Source of the DNA: Synechococcus sp. PROS-9-1 | GTDB taxonomy: Bacteria; Cyanobacteriota; Cyanobacteriia; PCC-6307; Cyanobiaceae | NCBI RefSeq assembly: GCF_014279775.1 | Contig: NZ_CP047961.1 | Location: forward strand, 1,178,001 to 1,242,000 | Reading direction: 5' to 3' | DNA: 64,000 bases | Shown here: in pieces, positions 1,802 to 54,111 of the stretch | Numbering within the stretch: the first letter of the stretch is position 1 | Layout of the letters: each line of letters starts with the position of its first letter | Notes under the pieces: model-generated | Database searches by the model: none | Told to the model about the DNA's origin: nothing | The model's input: the letters and a program-made list of their open reading frames with translations, nothing else | Position numbers and translations under genes: made by a program

Positions 1802-3535
1802 TTGCTCCAGACCCTGCAGCAACAGGGTCTACGCCACGTGGTGCTTTGTCCTGGCAGTCGCTCCGGTCCATTAGCCCTTGCCGCCGCTGGCTTAAAGCGC
1901 TCTGGGCTGATCACGCTCAGTACGGCGATCGATGAACGCTCTGCTGGATTTCATGCCCTCGGTCGCTCCACCGCCTCTGGTGTGGCCACGGCCGTGATCA
2001 CCACCTCCGGAACAGCGGTGGCCAATCTTCTCCCCGCAGCCGTTGAAGCGGATCGCTCCAGCCAACCCCTGCTGCTGATCAGCGCCGATCGGCCTCTACG
2101 GCTCAAAAACAAAGGGGCCAACCAAACCGTGAATCAGGAAGCCTTCCTCACCCCGGTGTGCCGCTGGTGTGGGTCAGGTCCCTTGGATGGCCTCAACACA
2201 GGGCTAGATCACGAGCTGCGAGCCCTGGCTCAGAACGCCTGGCGGCATCTGCATCAGCAGCCCGGACCTGTGCATCTCAACGTTCCCTTTGAAGAGCCCC
2301 TGCTTCCGGATCTGAATCAGCAGTACGCGTTTTGGAATCAATGGAACCGTTCAGAGCCTGAGGCCATCACCCACACCCCTGAGCTCTGGACGCCAGCGAG
2401 CAACAATGCTGCGCCAGCACTCGATCCTGACCAACCAGGTGTGATCGTTGCCGGGCCCTGGCGAGGCCTGAGCTCCACGCTTGAGCCCTATCAAGCCGCC
2501 TTAATCGCTTGGCAACAGCGCAGTGGCTGGCCCGTGCTCGCCGATCCACTCGCCGCGAGCCCGAATGGCTTAAGTGGCGTGATTCGCTACTGGGATCTGC
2601 TGCTCCCCCATGGTTTGAGCCAGCTGCCCGCCAACACCCAGGTGCTGCGCCTGGGCTCAATGCCGGCCAGTCGACGCCTGGAGGCCTGGCTTGAGAGCCA
2701 GCAGGGACCACAGCTGTTAATCACAGAAGCTGATCCACGGCCCCTCGATCCGCTCGAAATCGCCCAGCAATGGAGCGGCGGCTTGTCGCAATGGTGGCAA
2801 CAGCTCAGCCCCCAGCTCAACGCCATTCCAGCTGGTTCCTGTGCTCCAACCCCTCAAACACGGTCGGTGCTTGAGAGCTGGGAAAACGCAGATGCTGCTG
2901 TTGGCAAGCGCCTCTCTGCCCTGCTGCCGATCCAGGGAGCCGCCAATGAACCCGCCTTGATGGTTGCCCTGGCGCAGCTGTTGCCAGCTGCGCTGCCTGT
3001 GATGCTCGCTGCCAGCAGCCCTGTTCGTGATTGGCAAGCCTTTGCCGCAGGCGATACCGGCCGCCGGCGCTGTTTCAGCTTTCGGGGAGCCTCCGGCATC
3101 GATGGCACCCTTTCCCTGGCCCTGGGCTTAGCGGCCGAGCTCGGTCCAACAGTGCTGATCACAGGTGATCTAGCTCTGTTGCATGACAGCAATGGCTGGC
3201 TCCTGGCCAGCGCTGCCCAGCTGCCCCTGTTTGTGCTGTTGATCGACAACGCCGGCGGCGGCATTTTCGAACAGCTGCCGATCGAAACCACCCCCAGCGA
3301 TGGCTTTGATCAGCTGTTTGCGATGCCCCAACGGGTGGACCCACTGGCCCTGGCGGCAGCCCATTCCATCCCCGTGCGTCAGCTCGCCTGCCTCGATGAT
3401 CTCCCCACCGCTCTGGAATGGGGATTGGCGAGTCCTAGACCAGCACTCCTGCGGGTTTGCACCGATCGCCGCAGCGACGCCAAGCTTCGCCGCGATCTGC
3501 GTGAGGCGGTACAACAGAGAAGCAGCCTTTCCTGA
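1802..3535 (+). CDS. menD: 2-succinyl-5-enolpyruvyl-6-hydroxy-3-cyclohexene-1-carboxylate synthase
   Basis: Thiamine diphosphate enzyme that adds succinic semialdehyde to isochorismate in phylloquinone synthesis, which supplies photosystem [15 protein letters not shown] and [16 protein letters not shown] mark the N-terminal domain, and [12 protein letters not shown] with [11 protein letters not shown] the TPP-binding domain. The start is unclear. From the TTG at 1802 only 15 residues precede CPGSRS, whereas family members usually have about 30. The frame is open back to a stop at 1730 (TAG) but holds no ATG, GTG or TTG upstream, only ATC (1739, 1751) and CTG (1763). menB follows five bases after the stop, forming an operon. 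Confidence 0.92.
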
Positions 3536-5223: not shown

Positions 5224-6780
5224 ATGCGCGTGCTCTTTGCCGCCGCCGAATGCGCCCCGATGGTGAAAGTCGGTGGGATGGGCGATGTGGTGGGATCCCT
5301 TCCCCCTGCCCTGAAGGCTCTGGGGCACGACGTTCGTTTGATCATGCCGGGATACGGCAAGCTCTGGTCTCGATTGGAGATCCCTACGGAACCGATCTGG
5401 CGAGGCCAGACGATGGGAACCGATTTTGCGGTCTTTGAGACCCGTCATCCCACCAATGGCCTCACCATTTATCTGGTAGGTCACCCCGTCTTTGATCCAG
5501 AACGGATTTATGGCGGAGAAGATGAAGATTGGCGCTTCACTTTTTTTGCCAGTGCTGCGGCTGAATTTTCCTGGAACGTCTGGAAGCCGAATGTTCTCCA
5601 TTGCCATGACTGGCACACCGGCATGATTCCGGTCTGGATGCACCAAGACCCCGAGATCAGGACCGTCTACACGATCCACAACCTCAAATACCAAGGCCCC
5701 TGGCGCTGGAAGCTGGATCGGATGACTTGGTGCCCTTGGTACATGCAGGGCGACCACACCATGGCGGCCGCCCTGCTCTACGCCGATGGCGTGAATGCAG
5801 TGTCACCCACGTATTCCAGAGAGATCCGCACCTCGGAATACGGCGAAAAGCTGGATGGGTTGCTCAATTACATCTCCGGCAAGCTGCGCGGCATCCTGAA
5901 CGGGATTGATCTAGAGGCCTGGAATCCAGCCACCGATCAGGCCTTACCCGCCACCTTCAGCGCCAATGATTTGTCGGGTCGCGCCCACAACAAGCAGGTG
6001 CTCCAAGAACGCATGGGTCTTGAAGTCAGATCTGATGCCTATCTGCTGGGCATGGTGAGCCGTCTGGTGGATCAAAAAGGCGTTGATCTGCTGTTGCAAG
6101 TGGCGGATCGCTTGCTCGCCTACACCGACACCCAGATCGTGGTGCTTGGCACCGGTGAGCGCGGCTTGGAGTCCGGTCTTTGGCAGATGGCCTCCCGCTA
6201 TCCAGGTCGCGTGTCCGTCTTCCTCACCTACGACGACGACCTCTCACGCTTGATTTACGCCGGCAGTGACGCCTTCCTGATGCCCAGTCGGTTTGAGCCC
6301 TGTGGGATCAGTCAATTGCTCGCCATGCGCTACGGATGCGTACCTGTCGTGAGAAATGTGGGTGGTTTAGTCGATACGGTTCCACCGCACGATCCTGCCC
6401 AGCACAGCGGCACTGGTTTCTGCTTCGATAGTTTCGATCCCGTGGACTTCTACACCGCCCTGGTGCGCTCCTGGGAAGCCTTTCGCCATCAAGACAGCTG
6501 GCGCGAACTGCAGCGAAGGGGCATGCAGCAGGACTACAGCTGGGCGCGTTCAGCCATGGAATACGACCAGATGTACAGGGAGGTCTGTGGCCTCAAGGAG
6601 CCAGGCCCCGATGCCGCTGCCGTTGAACAGTTTTCCCAAGGCCAAGATGCGGATCCCTCCTTGGCACCAGGCCAACGCGGGGCCCCAAGCAGCCTCCCTG
6701 AACAATCCACCGATGACCAGTCCAATGGACCAGGCTCACGTAACCCGCTAGCCAGACTGTTTGGCGGTCAGCGAGGCTAA
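5224..6780 (+). CDS. glgA: glycogen synthase (ADP-glucose)
   Basis: GT5 family alpha-1,4-glucan synthase, extending glycogen from ADP-glucose. The protein opens with [22 protein letters not shown], including the KVGG substrate-binding loop (Lys15). It later shows [31 protein letters not shown] and the C-terminal [18 protein letters not shown] box with its conserved Glu. The last 45 or so residues are a Pro/Gln/Ser-rich tail beyond the usual domain end, giving 518 residues. It stands 57 bases after the L,D-transpeptidase remnant and 18 bases before the next membrane protein gene. Confidence 0.96.
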
Positions 6781-14409: not shown

Positions 14410-14727
14410 TTGCATAGCCTCAAAAGGGGTCAGAGTTTAGATGTCACATTCCAAGATTTTGATGAATCCAAGAGCTGCAAATTTTTAAAAATAGACGAGG
14501 GGGTGTTACGAATCAGCCTTATTTCAACAATCAATAATGAGATATTTCCGATTGGTTTTTTTAGTTCAGAATGGCTAAAAGTTGAAAACGACAGGCTGAG
14601 AGACTTTTCTCTTCGGATGGAAGCCTTAAATGAAGTCAACTTCAAAATCATATTCACATGTGGTCCCAACACGAAAGTAAGCTCAATTTTCCATAATCAC
14701 TGGCTATCGTCTTCATATAACACCTAA
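14410..14727 (+). CDS. possible half-length Crp-like sensor domain protein
   Basis: A 105-residue frame starting at TTG, with a weak AGG six bases upstream. Its middle (KIDEGVLRISLIS, NNEIFPIGFFSSEWLKV, then RMEALNEVNFKI) follows the strand pattern of the N-terminal effector domain of Crp/Fnr regulators. It aligns in style with the two full Crp proteins of this window (VRGIVKLSCLNEQGDDVLLAIAG and LEGIARVYCPCEE). It has no DNA-binding helix-turn-helix. The 3' end overlaps the Crp gene at 14724 tail to tail by four bases. An open frame this long is improbable by chance in AT-rich DNA, but it may be a remnant rather than a working gene. Confidence 0.45.
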   Translation: MHSLKRGQSLDVTFQDFDESKSCKFLKIDEGVLRISLISTINNEIFPIGFFSSEWLKVENDRLRDFSLRMEALNEVNFKIIFTCGPNTKVSSIFHNHWLSSSYNT

Positions 14728-49933: not shown

Positions 49934-50545
49934 ATGCAGAATCTTCAGGGTTGGAGGATTACGACCTTGGTCACGTCTTTCATTGTTGTTTTCTTGATCT
50001 TCAACTTCGGGTTAGCGGGGTGGAATGCCACTGCGATTAAACATGCGATTGATGCTACCGGGCGCAGCTCCCTGATCCTTTTTGGGATTGCCTTCACGGC
50101 CTCAAGTATTGAAAGCATTTGGCCTTCTTCGATCTCCCGCTGGTCGCTCCGAAATAGGCGCTGGATCGGTTTAAGTTTCGCCGCCTCCCATTTCATTCAT
50201 CTCGCTCTCATTATCTCAATATCCGTGTGGTTTCCAGAACCATTTTTGAGAGAACAGTCGTTGGGGCAGTGGATGTTTGGTGGTCTTGCCTATGTGTTTG
50301 TGTTTCTAATGGCTCTCACTTCAACCGATCGAGCTCAGCATTGGATGGGAATGAAGAACTGGAAGCGACTTCACTTTATTGGAGGTCATTGGATTTGGAC
50401 AGTATTCTTACTGACCTATCTAAAACATGTGAAGGAAGGTCCTCTTTGGTTTTATCTCCCCTTCTTGATCTTCACATTGCTGATGATTCCGATTCGATTT
50501 GCAAAGCACACTCCGCCGAGAGCGGCAATCAGGGCATCCATTTGA
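49934..50545 (+). CDS. ferric reductase-like heme membrane protein
   Basis: A 203-residue protein with about six membrane helices. Paired histidines lie in the third helix region (FAASHFIHLALI) and the fifth (WKRLHFIGGHWIWTVFL), the arrangement of heme b ligands in the ferric reductase-like transmembrane domain, as in MsrQ/YedZ. The electron partner is unknown; no MsrP gene is near. The ATG is in a good context (AACGATGCAG). A seven-base-pair hairpin follows the stop. Confidence 0.75.
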   Translation: MQNLQGWRITTLVTSFIVVFLIFNFGLAGWNATAIKHAIDATGRSSLILFGIAFTASSIESIWPSSISRWSLRNRRWIGLSFAASHFIHLALIISISVWFPEPFLREQSLGQWMFGGLAYVFVFLMALTSTDRAQHWMGMKNWKRLHFIGGHWIWTVFLLTYLKHVKEGPLWFYLPFLIFTLLMIPIRFAKHTPPRAAIRASI

Positions 50546-50551
50546 GCTAAA

Positions 50552-50572
50552 GGCTTTCCCTCGTTGAAAGCC
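50552..50572 (+). terminator. hairpin after the ferric reductase-like gene
   Basis: GGCTTTC-CCTCGTT-GAAAGCC is a perfect seven-base-pair stem starting seven bases after the stop, but without a T-run. It may be a weak terminator or an mRNA end. Confidence 0.4.
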
Positions 50573-50616
50573 ACTGCTGACGCCCAATTGCCTCAACCAT
50601 CTGGGTGCATCATTTC

Positions 50617-50840
50617 TATATCCTTATTAAGCAAAGTTCTCATCCCCAATGAAGAAAAGTCTTCATTTCTGTCCAATAGTTAAAGATTTTGGGTCGCCAA
50701 AGACACTCTCGCACTCCATCGCCAGTATTGGATTGGGACGGGAGGCATCACCCGTATAAGGCGGTCTCTACCGAGGAAGCACCCCGCCTTTCCCATAGGA
50801 AGGAAGGTTGGCTTACAAGAGAGGCGACCTTCTTTTTTAT
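50617..50840 (+). ncRNA. structured RNA-like tandem element, copy 1
   Basis: About 224 bases resembling copy 2 at 51437-51660 along their whole length. Shared blocks are TATATCCT, AGAAAAGTCTTCATTTCT, CACCCGTA and TAGGCGGTCTCT-like, then CCTTTCCCAT and GCGACCTTCTT. Hairpin 1 is AAGGCGG (50758-50764) with CCGCCTT (50784-50790). Hairpin 2 is GAAGGTT (50803-50809) with GACCTTC (50826-50832), followed by TTTTTT, a terminator. Stems are kept between copies while loops vary. A 36-codon frame (50649-50759, ATG, starting MKKSLHFCPIVKDFG) lies inside; copy 2 has no start codon for it. The family is not one I know. Confidence 0.5.
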
Positions 50841-51089
50841 GCCCGCCAATAAAAAATAGGTATGTATCTCTACAGACACTGCCCAATTCACTAGCTTCTA
50901 TTGGTGGGGGTAAGAGTGTTTGGAGAGGCGCTCTTTCGAACGGCGGTCGATTGAGAATACGACCGCTTTTTAATACGTCGATCAAAAACAGGTGATTATT
51001 ATTTAGAATCCCTTCATCAAGACAGCTTGGCAATAACATTCGTATAAACTTATCTTTGAATTTGCTAAATACAATCCAAACGATTACTC

Positions 51090-51354
51090 GAAACAATCGC
51101 CTGGACATTAGATTTAGGCAAGTCATTTTTGAAATTTGTAGATCATTTCATAACGAAGAGGTTCCTGCTCGAGAAGCAAAAGGGATCAAGCTGCTCTATC
51201 GCGGAGTTTCTAGGCACAATCAATCGAAAACCTAATGATCGTTGAAGCTGAGAAGGGTGTGATCTCTAATCACATGCAAGAAAATACAGTGCGGTTCGTT
51301 GAGAATGATGTGCTGATTCACACAGCCGTCATCAGCTCATACAACGAGGGCTGA
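51090..51354 (+). pseudogene. decayed DUF3764 gene
   Basis: Homology to DUF3764 runs through three frames. The first part (WTLDLGKSFLKFVDHF) is in the frame of position 51141. The next (NEEVPAREAKGIKLLYRGVS, then NQSK) is in the frame of 51155 and meets TAA after SKT. The last (MIVEAEKGVISNHMQEN to TAVISSYNEG, stop TGA 51352) is in the frame of 51235. Both switches correspond to single missing bases, the second in an AAAA run. The GIKxLYRGVS core matches the intact gene at 52224. No start codon remains. Confidence 0.65.
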
Positions 51355-51436
51355 TCCTCTCATCTTCCTATCAAACGTCCTCTCAAGAGTGTGAATTTCT
51401 AGACACCTAGCTCCTCCAGCTGGGGTGAGATCTTTG

Positions 51437-51660
51437 TATATCCTTTTTAAACTTAGTTCTCATTTTTATTTAAGAAAAGTCTTCATTTCTTTCCGATAGG
51501 TAAAGCTTCTAGGATCACCAGAGACACAGAACACCTCAATCAGCAAAATCAGATTGGGTTGGGACTAATCCACCCGTAATTAGGCGGTCTCTCTCAATGA
51601 AGAACCTGCCTTTCCCATTAAAAGAAGGTCTACCTTACCCCTAAGCGACCTTCTTTCTTT
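51437..51660 (+). ncRNA. structured RNA-like tandem element, copy 2
   Basis: Diverged second copy of the 50617-50840 element. Hairpin 1 is AGGCGG (51582-51587) with CTGCCT (51606-51611), where one C-to-T change gives a G-U pair. Hairpin 2 is GAAGGTC (51624-51630) with GACCTTC (51647-51653), fully paired and followed by TTTCTTT. The internal frame seen in copy 1 is open to the same stop but begins TTT-AAG instead of ATG-AAG, so it cannot start normally. Conservation of stems over coding potential favours an RNA. Confidence 0.5.
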
Positions 51661-51902
51661 ATGGATCAACTCGCTCAGCCAATGGATTAGCCCACTACCC
51701 CTATCTTCTCATCCGCCTAAATAGCCTTACTTGTTGCCAAGCACTTAGCAGAATAAGAAGTTGCCTTGTGTAGTCGGTATAACGATTACATACGTTCGTA
51801 ACAAGTATTACGCCAAACCAATAAAAAGCAACTTGGTCGTAGGTGATACACACAAGATTGGATTGGATGAACTAACACTGATATATCGCCGGACTGTTGG
51901 AC

Positions 51903-52223: not shown

Positions 52224-52514
52224 TTATTCCTCCAGCCATTCTCCAACTTCAGCAGTTGATAGATCAACTCCGTGACTGGAAATCCACTCCCCATATTTTT
52301 GAATAAAAGCATCAGCCGCTCCTTCAGGTGCCTGGTGGATGACAACGATCTTGCTGCGATCTGCTTTACTAACACCCCGGTACAGAGGCTTGATACCGAA
52401 CTCAGCATGCCGCTGAGCACCTAGATCGCTATCAAAACTCTTGACCCATTCGCTGAAGGGCACATTGATCTTGAGGGTGATCACGGTGGTGACTGTCATG
52501 ACCAGAACAGACAT
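52224..52514 (-). CDS. DUF3764 family protein
   Basis: A 91- to 96-residue soluble protein. The conserved DUF3764 features are VTTVITLKINVPFSEWVKSFDS, GIKPLYRGVSKADRSKIVVIHQAPEG, and the C-terminal EWISSHGVDLSTAEVGEWL. Starts are possible at 52514 (MSVLV) and 52499 (MTVTTV, better fit). The family is abundant in marine Synechococcus and Prochlorococcus and has no assigned activity; the fold is probably a ferredoxin-like alpha/beta sandwich. A decayed relative lies about 1 kb to the left. Confidence 0.75.
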   Translation of the reverse strand: MSVLVMTVTTVITLKINVPFSEWVKSFDSDLGAQRHAEFGIKPLYRGVSKADRSKIVVIHQAPEGAADAFIQKYGEWISSHGVDLSTAEVGEWLEE

Positions 52515-52745
52515 TGATAGTGCTTCTTCAAAAGTACCTGCTGAATGCTGTTTCGTCGATGAAGAAAAGCAGCTACGCAAAATTCGACTTCTCCAGGATT
52601 CTTCTGCTGGAGGCCTTAACCAGTGGCAGCCATCAGTAGCTCACGAAACAGGGACCACGTCATCTCAGTATCGAGAGTCATCAGCAAAATTACTAAGTAG
52701 ACAGAAATAAAAGAGGGTGAGGACTTATACGCTCATGCCTCTAAA

Positions 52746-53825: not shown

Positions 53826-54111
53826 ACGTAAAAATACCTTGGCCGTAACAGAGTGGTGCCTCGGCCCCCTGCTTTACCCTTTCGGGTGTTGTATGGCTTT
53901 CAGCCAACAGGCTTCGAAAGAGCTGTCCACTTACTCCGAGCATCAACTGATATTCAAGGCCTTGTTTTCACGATTCTTACGCCATGATTGAAATGTGAGG
54001 AGGGCTTCTTCACGGAGTGGAAACAAGGCAACACACCCATCATGAAACTGAAATATCCCAGTCAATTTTCACTGAAGAGTTCTGTTGCCAATAATCTGCA
54101 TGATCTTGCAC
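53826..54111. other. spacer with no supported gene
   Basis: Short frames on both strands only. A minus-strand 28-codon frame (starting near 54034, CFHSVKKPSSHFNHG) looks slightly protein-like but is too short to support. No tRNA or known RNA seen. Confidence 0.3.

What the first reader, a model, noticed from the sequence alone, without database searches (positions are those of the whole stretch)
50617..51660. Two tandem copies of a terminator-ended, structured RNA-like element
Seen: about 224-base elements at 50617-50840 and 51437-51660 share sequence blocks and two hairpins. Stem changes keep pairing (GAAGGTT/GACCTTC versus GAAGGTC/GACCTTC; CCGCCT versus CTGCCT giving G-U), loops vary freely, and both end in T-runs. 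Inferred: tandem small RNA genes, perhaps with different targets via their loops. It is not one of the Yfr families I can recall.
Basis: partly seen in the sequence, partly recalled or inferred. Interest (0 to 1): 0.62.

Follow-up and report, generated by a model that had tools for sequence, protein, structure and literature searches.

The report
Clade-specific tandem small-RNA gene family
The two repeats are real and belong to a family of small, apparently non-protein RNA genes, standing in short tandem rows, that was found in only one branch of marine Synechococcus-like cyanobacteria; what they regulate is unknown.

Summary
The elements (window 50613-50841 and 51433-51662) are 73% identical over about 230 bases. 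Homologs exist in two congeners; between these the element is a conserved island in a diverged spacer without codon-phase bias.

A covariance model built from seven relatives of that unit (no copy-1/2-type rows) finds 24 matches in 9 of 31 congeners, 17 of them not used to build it; copy 1 is among them (E 5.5e-4). So the three window units are probably kin; copy 2 alone is weaker. In 400 genomes of the family only those nine genomes match, and they form one supported clade. Units often stand in tandem, each with its own terminator; the terminator stem covaries (22 double-change cells against 6.3 shuffled, 0/500). Rfam has no match.

Best reading: clade-specific sibling trans-acting sRNAs. Two conserved apical-loop types (CUGGGGAG, 9 of 33 units; CACCCCCGUG, 5 of 33) are candidate seeds, adjacent and partly complementary in three genomes. 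Expression, targets and loop pairing are untested; relation to Yfr103 is open.

The parts
50613..50693 (+). Copy 1 (A1): conserved 5' block with imperfect palindrome TGAAGA-AAAG-TCTTCA at 50650-50665; probably promoter or control region, possibly 5' part of the RNA
   Evidence: 79% identical to 51433-51513; conserved in G014 and G021. One arm base is changed in copy 2, and G014/G021 have a 1-base deletion. Role inferred.
50697..50841 (+). A1 RNA body: variable 5' segment, junction helix TGGGA/TTCCC(A), hairpin CGGG/CCCG, stem AAGGCGG (50758-50764)/CCGCCTT (50784-50790), terminator
   Evidence: R1 match 142.7 bits, by construction; R2 match E 5.5e-4 in the whole genome and R3 match E 0.0023, neither model holding copy-1/2-type rows
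50800..50838 (+). A1 terminator hairpin and T-run
50862..50976 (+). Unit B: third, overlooked unit, about 21 bases after A1's T-run; apical hairpin GAGTG/CGCTC and terminator GGCGGTCG/CGACCGCT + TTTT
   Evidence: blastn homologs, R2 107.5 bits (B is one of its seven rows), fold z -2.56 for 50890-50985
51056..51354 (+). Decayed DUF3764 gene between B and copy 2
   Evidence: Pfam DUF3764 below cut-off, E 0.16; BLASTP to the intact gene at 52224-52580 E 7e-07 for that single comparison; second half read by eye
51433..51513 (+). Copy 2 (A2): conserved 5' block
51518..51662 (+). A2 RNA body with terminator AAGAAGGTC/GACCTTCTT and loop holding CTTACCCC
   Evidence: R1 match 137.5 bits, by construction; R2 only weak: E 0.027 and 0.058 in small sets, not better than background with filters off

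Best explanation
The window holds three units (A1, B, A2) of a clade-specific, multicopy family of small non-coding RNA genes. A typical unit is about 105-150 nt: a short 5' leader with ..GACA.., one apical hairpin (more in A1/A2), and a terminator hairpin with T-run; units often follow one another at about 130 nt. Shown by comparison: conservation, non-coding pattern, terminator covariation, homology of units, tandem layout, restriction to one clade. Inferred: each unit is transcribed on its own, and the products act in trans by pairing through the apical loop. The two conserved loop types CUGGGGAG and CACCCCCGUG would be the seeds, and duplicated siblings would share or split targets. The conserved block before A1 and A2 would be a regulated promoter.
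For: Homologs and conserved island. No codon-phase bias, with neighbouring genes as positive controls; single-base indels in 4 of 5 other unit pairs and no consistent third-position excess. R2, built on 7 B-type rows, gives 24 matches in 9 of 31 congeners at E <= 0.05, 17 of them not training rows. R3, built on 26 non-A rows, gives 32 matches in the same nine genomes at E <= 0.01; 26 are training rows, 6 are not, copy 1 being the weakest. R3 with filters off: 14 matches at E <= 2 in 67,005 bases of five array loci, 0 in 64,584 bases of 20 DUF3764 loci, 19 of these from non-bearing genomes. Terminator stem on a structure-blind alignment of 26 units: 89.9% of cells paired, 22 double-change cells against 6.3 shuffled, covariation 0.413 against 0.294, each 0/500. 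One origin on GlnA trees, support 100/100 and 100/99. Unit f keeps place and sequence between G014 and G000.
Against: No transcript, promoter or target evidence at all. In one search two measures are not remarkable: pairs with a double change 6 against 3.9 (26/500), further pair types 15 against 13.9 (147/500). Fold energies are modest: median z -1.81 over 33 units, 13 below -2. The simple promoter scan finds none before A1, B or A2. The A-B link rests mainly on copy 1; G014's A element is not recovered by R2 or R3. G014_A and G021_A lack a proper T-run.
Confidence: 0.6

Rival explanations
1. The units are the clade's diverged form, or fragments, of Yfr103, an abundant multi-paralog picocyanobacterial ncRNA.
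For: Passages of PMC5069720: Yfr103-type RNAs have seven paralogs in Synechococcus CC9605, homologs in strains including CC9311, a conserved structure, and an imperfect palindrome at -29 to -58 from the start site. If the RNA starts near 50697, the palindrome at 50650-50665 lies at about -32 to -47. G021's length (2,606,748) is the one I recall for CC9311.
Against: Yfr103 copies are 290-328 nt and occur in many clades and in Prochlorococcus; single units here are about 105-150 nt and R2 finds none outside nine genomes of one genus among 400 family genomes. The start site is my guess. No Yfr103 sequence was available, so no direct comparison was made.
Confidence: 0.12
2. A REP/MITE-like or terminator-repeat element spreading through intergenic DNA, without a regulatory RNA product.
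For: Multicopy, intergenic, mostly different neighbours; T-run followed by ATG in 20 of 33 units against 4.3% in shuffled units, as if the flank travels with the unit.
Against: Copies are strongly diverged rather than recent near-copies, keep stem pairing, and some keep their place between species (f: G014/G000; t: G013/G030 and G007/G020). No terminal inverted repeats, target duplications or transposase were looked for systematically.
Confidence: 0.13
3. Cis-acting 3' UTR or attenuator elements of the upstream genes.
For: A1, A2, G014_A and G021_A each follow a gene or relic on the same strand within roughly 70-200 bases.
Against: The upstream genes are unrelated: MsrQ-like 203-aa ORF, DUF3764 relic, 270/282-aa ORF without Pfam match. 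The conserved block lies before the RNA body. Many units follow another unit's terminator rather than a gene.
Confidence: 0.08
4. Short proteins are encoded.
For: Open frames exist: in G014 and G021 one of 57 codons without an ATG/GTG/TTG start common to both, and an antisense frame of about 49 codons.
Against: Those frames are interrupted in copy 1 or copy 2; no third-position bias in sense or antisense frames; single-base indels between close pairs.
Confidence: 0.03

Closest known systems
NsiR1 of Nostoc PCC 7120 (tandem sibling sRNA; passages of PMC9045159)
   Same: Cyanobacterial sRNA in tandem copies, some diverged, with partly different targets
   Different: About 60 nt, 12 copies before hetF, individual promoters with a DIF1 motif; here 105-150 nt units at several loci per genome, more diverged, with T-run terminators; no sequence comparison made
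Yfr1/Yfr10 and Yfr2 (passages of PMC6778093)
   Same: Two sRNA types with complementary motifs; Yfr10 is encoded upstream of Yfr2 in high-light Prochlorococcus, as C-loop units stand upstream of G-loop units in three genomes here
   Different: Those are nearly universal in cyanobacteria; this family was found in nine genomes of one genus, and its loops (CUGGGGAG, CACCCCCGUG) lack the UCCU core named for Yfr1/Yfr10
Yfr103 (passages of PMC5069720)
   Same: Multi-paralog ncRNA of marine picocyanobacteria with an upstream palindrome
   Different: 290-328 nt and wide distribution; sequence not available here
Cyano-1 RNA, RF01701
   Same: Marine cyanobacterial small RNA; one copy lies in the window (53989-54053) and one within 10 kb of each of the G014 and G021 A elements
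   Different: Different sequence; the units do not match its model

Membership tests
Any Rfam 15 family | Covariance-model match at the gathering score | tested here: not met
   Window: only Cyano-1, elsewhere; 50500-51750 at E <= 5: one chance-level miRNA match; 16 family loci at E <= 0.5: one match, ctRNA_p42d, below its cut-off
Cyano-1 (RF01701) | Model match over the units | tested here: not met
   matches lie outside the units
Yfr103 | Length 290-328 nt | tested here: not met
   Single units about 105-150 nt from models and terminators; real transcript lengths unknown
Yfr103 | Sequence and structure homology to CC9605/MIT9313 copies | not testable with these tools
   No sequence in the passages seen
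Yfr103 | Presence across several Synechococcus clades and Prochlorococcus | tested here: not met
   R2: 9 of 400 family genomes, 1 of 59 genera
Yfr1/Yfr10 | Conserved motif with UCCU core | tested here: not met
   The two recurring apical loops lack UCCU; the full Yfr1 motif was not searched
Sibling/tandem sRNA genes (kind, not homology) | Several related units in tandem, each with own terminator | tested here: met
Sibling/tandem sRNA genes (kind, not homology) | Each unit transcribed as a discrete RNA | not testable with these tools
   No expression data

The most novel reading that the evidence does not exclude
The arrays encode matched partner RNAs: a unit with a CCCC tetraloop (CAC-CCCC-GUG) directly upstream of a unit with a GGGG tetraloop (CU-GGGG-AG), which kiss through their loops so that one titrates the other. 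This would be a clade-private analogue of Yfr10/Yfr2, built from one duplicated ancestor. Basis: C-type directly before G-type in G021, G007 and G020. Against: 4 of the 9 exact G-type units follow a family unit that is not C-type, and the two other C-type units (G014, G000) have no recognised unit after them. Within the window the loops diverge: A2 keeps CUUACCCC, B reads GUUUGGAGAGG.
Probability: 0.2. Interest if true: 0.75.

Novelty: new member of a known kind. Interest (0 to 1): 0.58.

Why it matters
Small-RNA families of marine picocyanobacteria known to me are mostly widespread; here one clade seems to have evolved a set of its own, with several diverged sibling units per genome, absent from 22 congeners searched. 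That offers a bounded system for asking how sRNA genes arise by duplication, how loops (seeds) diverge, and whether clade-specific RNAs contribute to ecological separation. It also gives concrete coordinates and models for re-reading existing transcriptomes.

Tried and rejected
Protein-coding reading: rejected. Rfam: no match. Phage or viral origin: no blastn match in 50,697 phage records; a 17-letter pattern gave 60 viral stretches, none of which R1 matched. G062 match of R1 (E 0.0038 in one of 400 genomes): taken as chance, because it lies across the end of one gene and the start of another. Shared neighbour gene: none at all loci; DUF3764 lies within 6 kb at 5 of 20 regions compared but is present in 28 of 31 congeners; R1 finds nothing in 29 DUF3764 loci. 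A specific upstream motif elsewhere: a 34-letter pattern with 3 mismatches hits only the two window copies in 31 genomes; the 1-base deletion in G014/G021 makes it blind there. G025 blast match to B (26 bases): looks like coding sequence, rejected. R1 against B loci with filters off: L241 E 2.6e-5, but L240 0.015, L238 0.019, L239 0.11 and L237 0.22 are near a wrong-strand match at 0.093, so only the first is evidence. Shuffle test on four A sequences: uninformative. Rows dropped: A11 holds 26 of the 33 folded units (left out: four A rows, G026_d, G026_g1, G030_Bup); the truncated match L271 6608-6686 and weak matches L272 6256-6317 and window 14462-14565 were not folded. The first GlnA tree leaves out G016, G023 (partial) and G029; the second, on 615 columns, adds the first two. 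The genome-contig scan was wasted on too short a pattern (119 stretches, capped) and these stretches were not studied. Papers: ten searches; passages only of PMC7368042, PMC6202907, PMC6778093, PMC2864571, PMC9045159 and PMC5069720. No description of this family was seen in them; most subscription papers are not held, e.g. the ISME J paper asked for.

Full report
Check of the observation. The two elements are real and at the stated coordinates. The repeat finder pairs 50613-50693 with 51433-51513 (79%), 50783-50816 with 51605-51638 (71%), 50756-50783 with 51579-51606 (79%) and 50824-50838 with 51645-51659 (93%), at spacings of 820-823. Blastn of copy 1 in its own genome finds copy 2 at E 4.6e-25, 73% identity. 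Both end in terminator-like hairpins. Fold energies alone are unremarkable for copy 2 (z -1.16) and modest for copy 1 (z -2.56).

Homologs. In 31 congeneric genomes blastn finds full-length homologs only in G014 and G021; model R1, built on the four sequences, finds the same four places in 31 genomes and, among 400 family genomes, these plus one chance match. Between G014 and G021 the element stands out: 50-base windows at 0.92, 0.76, 0.92, 0.96 and 0.80 identity, against 0.36-0.64 in the windows next to it. The 0.76 window is the variable stretch between the 5' block and the RNA body.

Not coding. In the longest open frame common to G014 and G021, 18 differences fall in phases 4/9/5 with 2 synonymous and 13 non-synonymous codons; antisense frames give 2/13, 3/13 and 4/9. 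The neighbouring DUF3764 gene gives phases 3/3/21 and 18/6, the metallothionein gene 2/4/10 and 8/7. In five other close pairs of units the substitutions show no consistent third-position excess, and four of the five pairs have single-base indels.

A third unit. Between the copies, blastn with 50860-51010 finds relatives in G014, G013, G030, G021 and, over shorter stretches, in G005 and G026; the G025 match is 26 bases and rejected. The unit (50862-50976) begins about 21 bases after A1's T-run, and its relatives likewise follow a T-run closely.

One family. R2, built on seven such B rows, finds 24 matches at E <= 0.05 in 9 of 31 congeners, 17 of them not used to build it. Copy 1 is among them at E 5.5e-4. 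In smaller sets G021's A element (0.018 and 0.038) and copy 2 (0.027 and 0.058) appear; G014's A element does not, and copy 2 is at background. R3, built on 26 non-A units, gives 32 matches in the same nine genomes at E <= 0.01: 26 are its own rows, six are not, and copy 1 (E 0.0023) is the weakest. On L205 R3 finds G021's A element at E 0.001; on L204 it does not find G014's. I take the A-B kinship as likely, not proven. As a control, R3 with filters off gives nothing at E <= 2 in 64,584 bases of 20 DUF3764 loci (19 from non-bearing genomes, one, L219, from bearer G005), against 14 matches in 67,005 bases of five array loci.

Layout. R2 finds a second unit next to a first, same strand, at eight places outside the window (G030 three, and G021, G007, G013, G020, G026 one each); the upstream units score E 1.6e-4 to 0.04 at five and 0.4 to 0.76 at three. 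R3, which holds most of these as training rows, scores seven of the eight. By eye and by a hairpin scan there are further terminator-ended units at several loci, not caught by the models at a strict level (L269 6163-6253 E 0.024 and L268 6718-6836 E 0.06).

Structure. On a structure-blind MAFFT alignment of 26 non-A units, the ten-pair terminator stem is formed in 89.9% of cells (slid by 1-3 columns: 35.7-74.0%); 22 cells have both sides changed against 6.3 in shuffles, covariation 0.413 against 0.294, each 0/500. Pairs with a double change (6 against 3.9; 26/500) and further pair types (15 against 13.9; 147/500) are weaker. A terminator stem is expected of any terminated RNA, so this supports a transcript end rather than a special fold. 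Of 33 units folded, 32 have z below 0, 13 below -2, median -1.81. The apical hairpin recurs, with exact CTGGGGAG in 9 of 33 and exact CACCCCCGTG in 5 of 33; its covariation was inspected by eye only.

Distribution. R2 matches in 9 of 400 genomes of the family, 1 of 59 genera (stricter filters, one genome per species, so weak or unheld members can be missed). On GlnA trees the nine bearers are one side of a branch with support 100/100 (28 rows) and 100/99 (30 of 31 genomes). A single origin, or a single retention, is the simplest reading. Some loci keep their place: f between G014 and G000, t between G013 and G030 and between G007 and G020. The A elements of G000 and of G014/G021 lie in different surroundings, sharing only a DUF3764 gene of 34-37% identity nearby and a Cyano-1 RNA within 10 kb.

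How it may work. The layout (leader, exposed apical loop, terminator; sibling copies) is that of trans-acting base-pairing sRNAs. I think it likeliest that the apical loops are seeds. In G021, G007 and G020 a CCCC-loop unit stands directly before a GGGG-loop unit, which would allow loop-loop pairing as between Yfr10 and Yfr2 (PMC6778093, passages). Against a fixed pairing: of the nine exact G-loop units only three follow a C-loop unit, four follow a family unit with another loop, and two follow neither type. The conserved 80-base block before A1 and A2 with its palindrome is probably a control region; a consensus promoter scan finds none there, which says little for cyanobacteria.

Known relatives. 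No Rfam family matches. NsiR1 (PMC9045159, passages) is the best precedent for tandem sibling sRNAs. Yfr103 (PMC5069720, passages) is the main known candidate not excluded: it too is multi-paralog and has an upstream palindrome, but it is longer and much more widespread.

Verdict. The finding is real and larger than described: a clade-restricted family of tandem small-RNA genes, new to the libraries searched, of a known general kind, with function unknown and testable.

Noticed in passing
window 53989-54053 (+): Cyano-1 RNA (RF01701), 50.3 bits; copies also lie within 10 kb of the A elements in G014 (L204 1421-1485) and G021 (L205 17953-18017).
   Followed up: partly
window 51056-51354 (+) and 52224-52580 (-): Decayed DUF3764 gene between the copies and an intact DUF3764 gene downstream; DUF3764 is found in 28 of 31 congeners.
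   Followed up: partly
window 49934-50545 (+): ORF of 203 aa resembling MsrQ (NCBIfam E 1.4e-06, below its cut-off), ending about 70 bases before copy 1's 5' block; a relative of 83% identity lies in the G007 region L277.
   Followed up: no
L283 about 3050-3250 (+), L277 about 6400-6620 (-), L205 about 3000-3200 (-): A further conserved, terminator-ended stretch (..GGACAGGGCGGCTTTTTTT) directly before the C-loop unit in three genomes, of no known family.
   Followed up: partly
L268 6718-6836 (-), L269 6163-6253 (+): More distant terminator-ended units carrying GCTGGGGAGC-like or GCTGGGAAG-like apical loops before B-type units in G014.
   Followed up: partly
units listed: The T-run is followed directly by ATG in 20 of 33 units, against 4.3% in shuffled units; reason unknown.
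   Followed up: no
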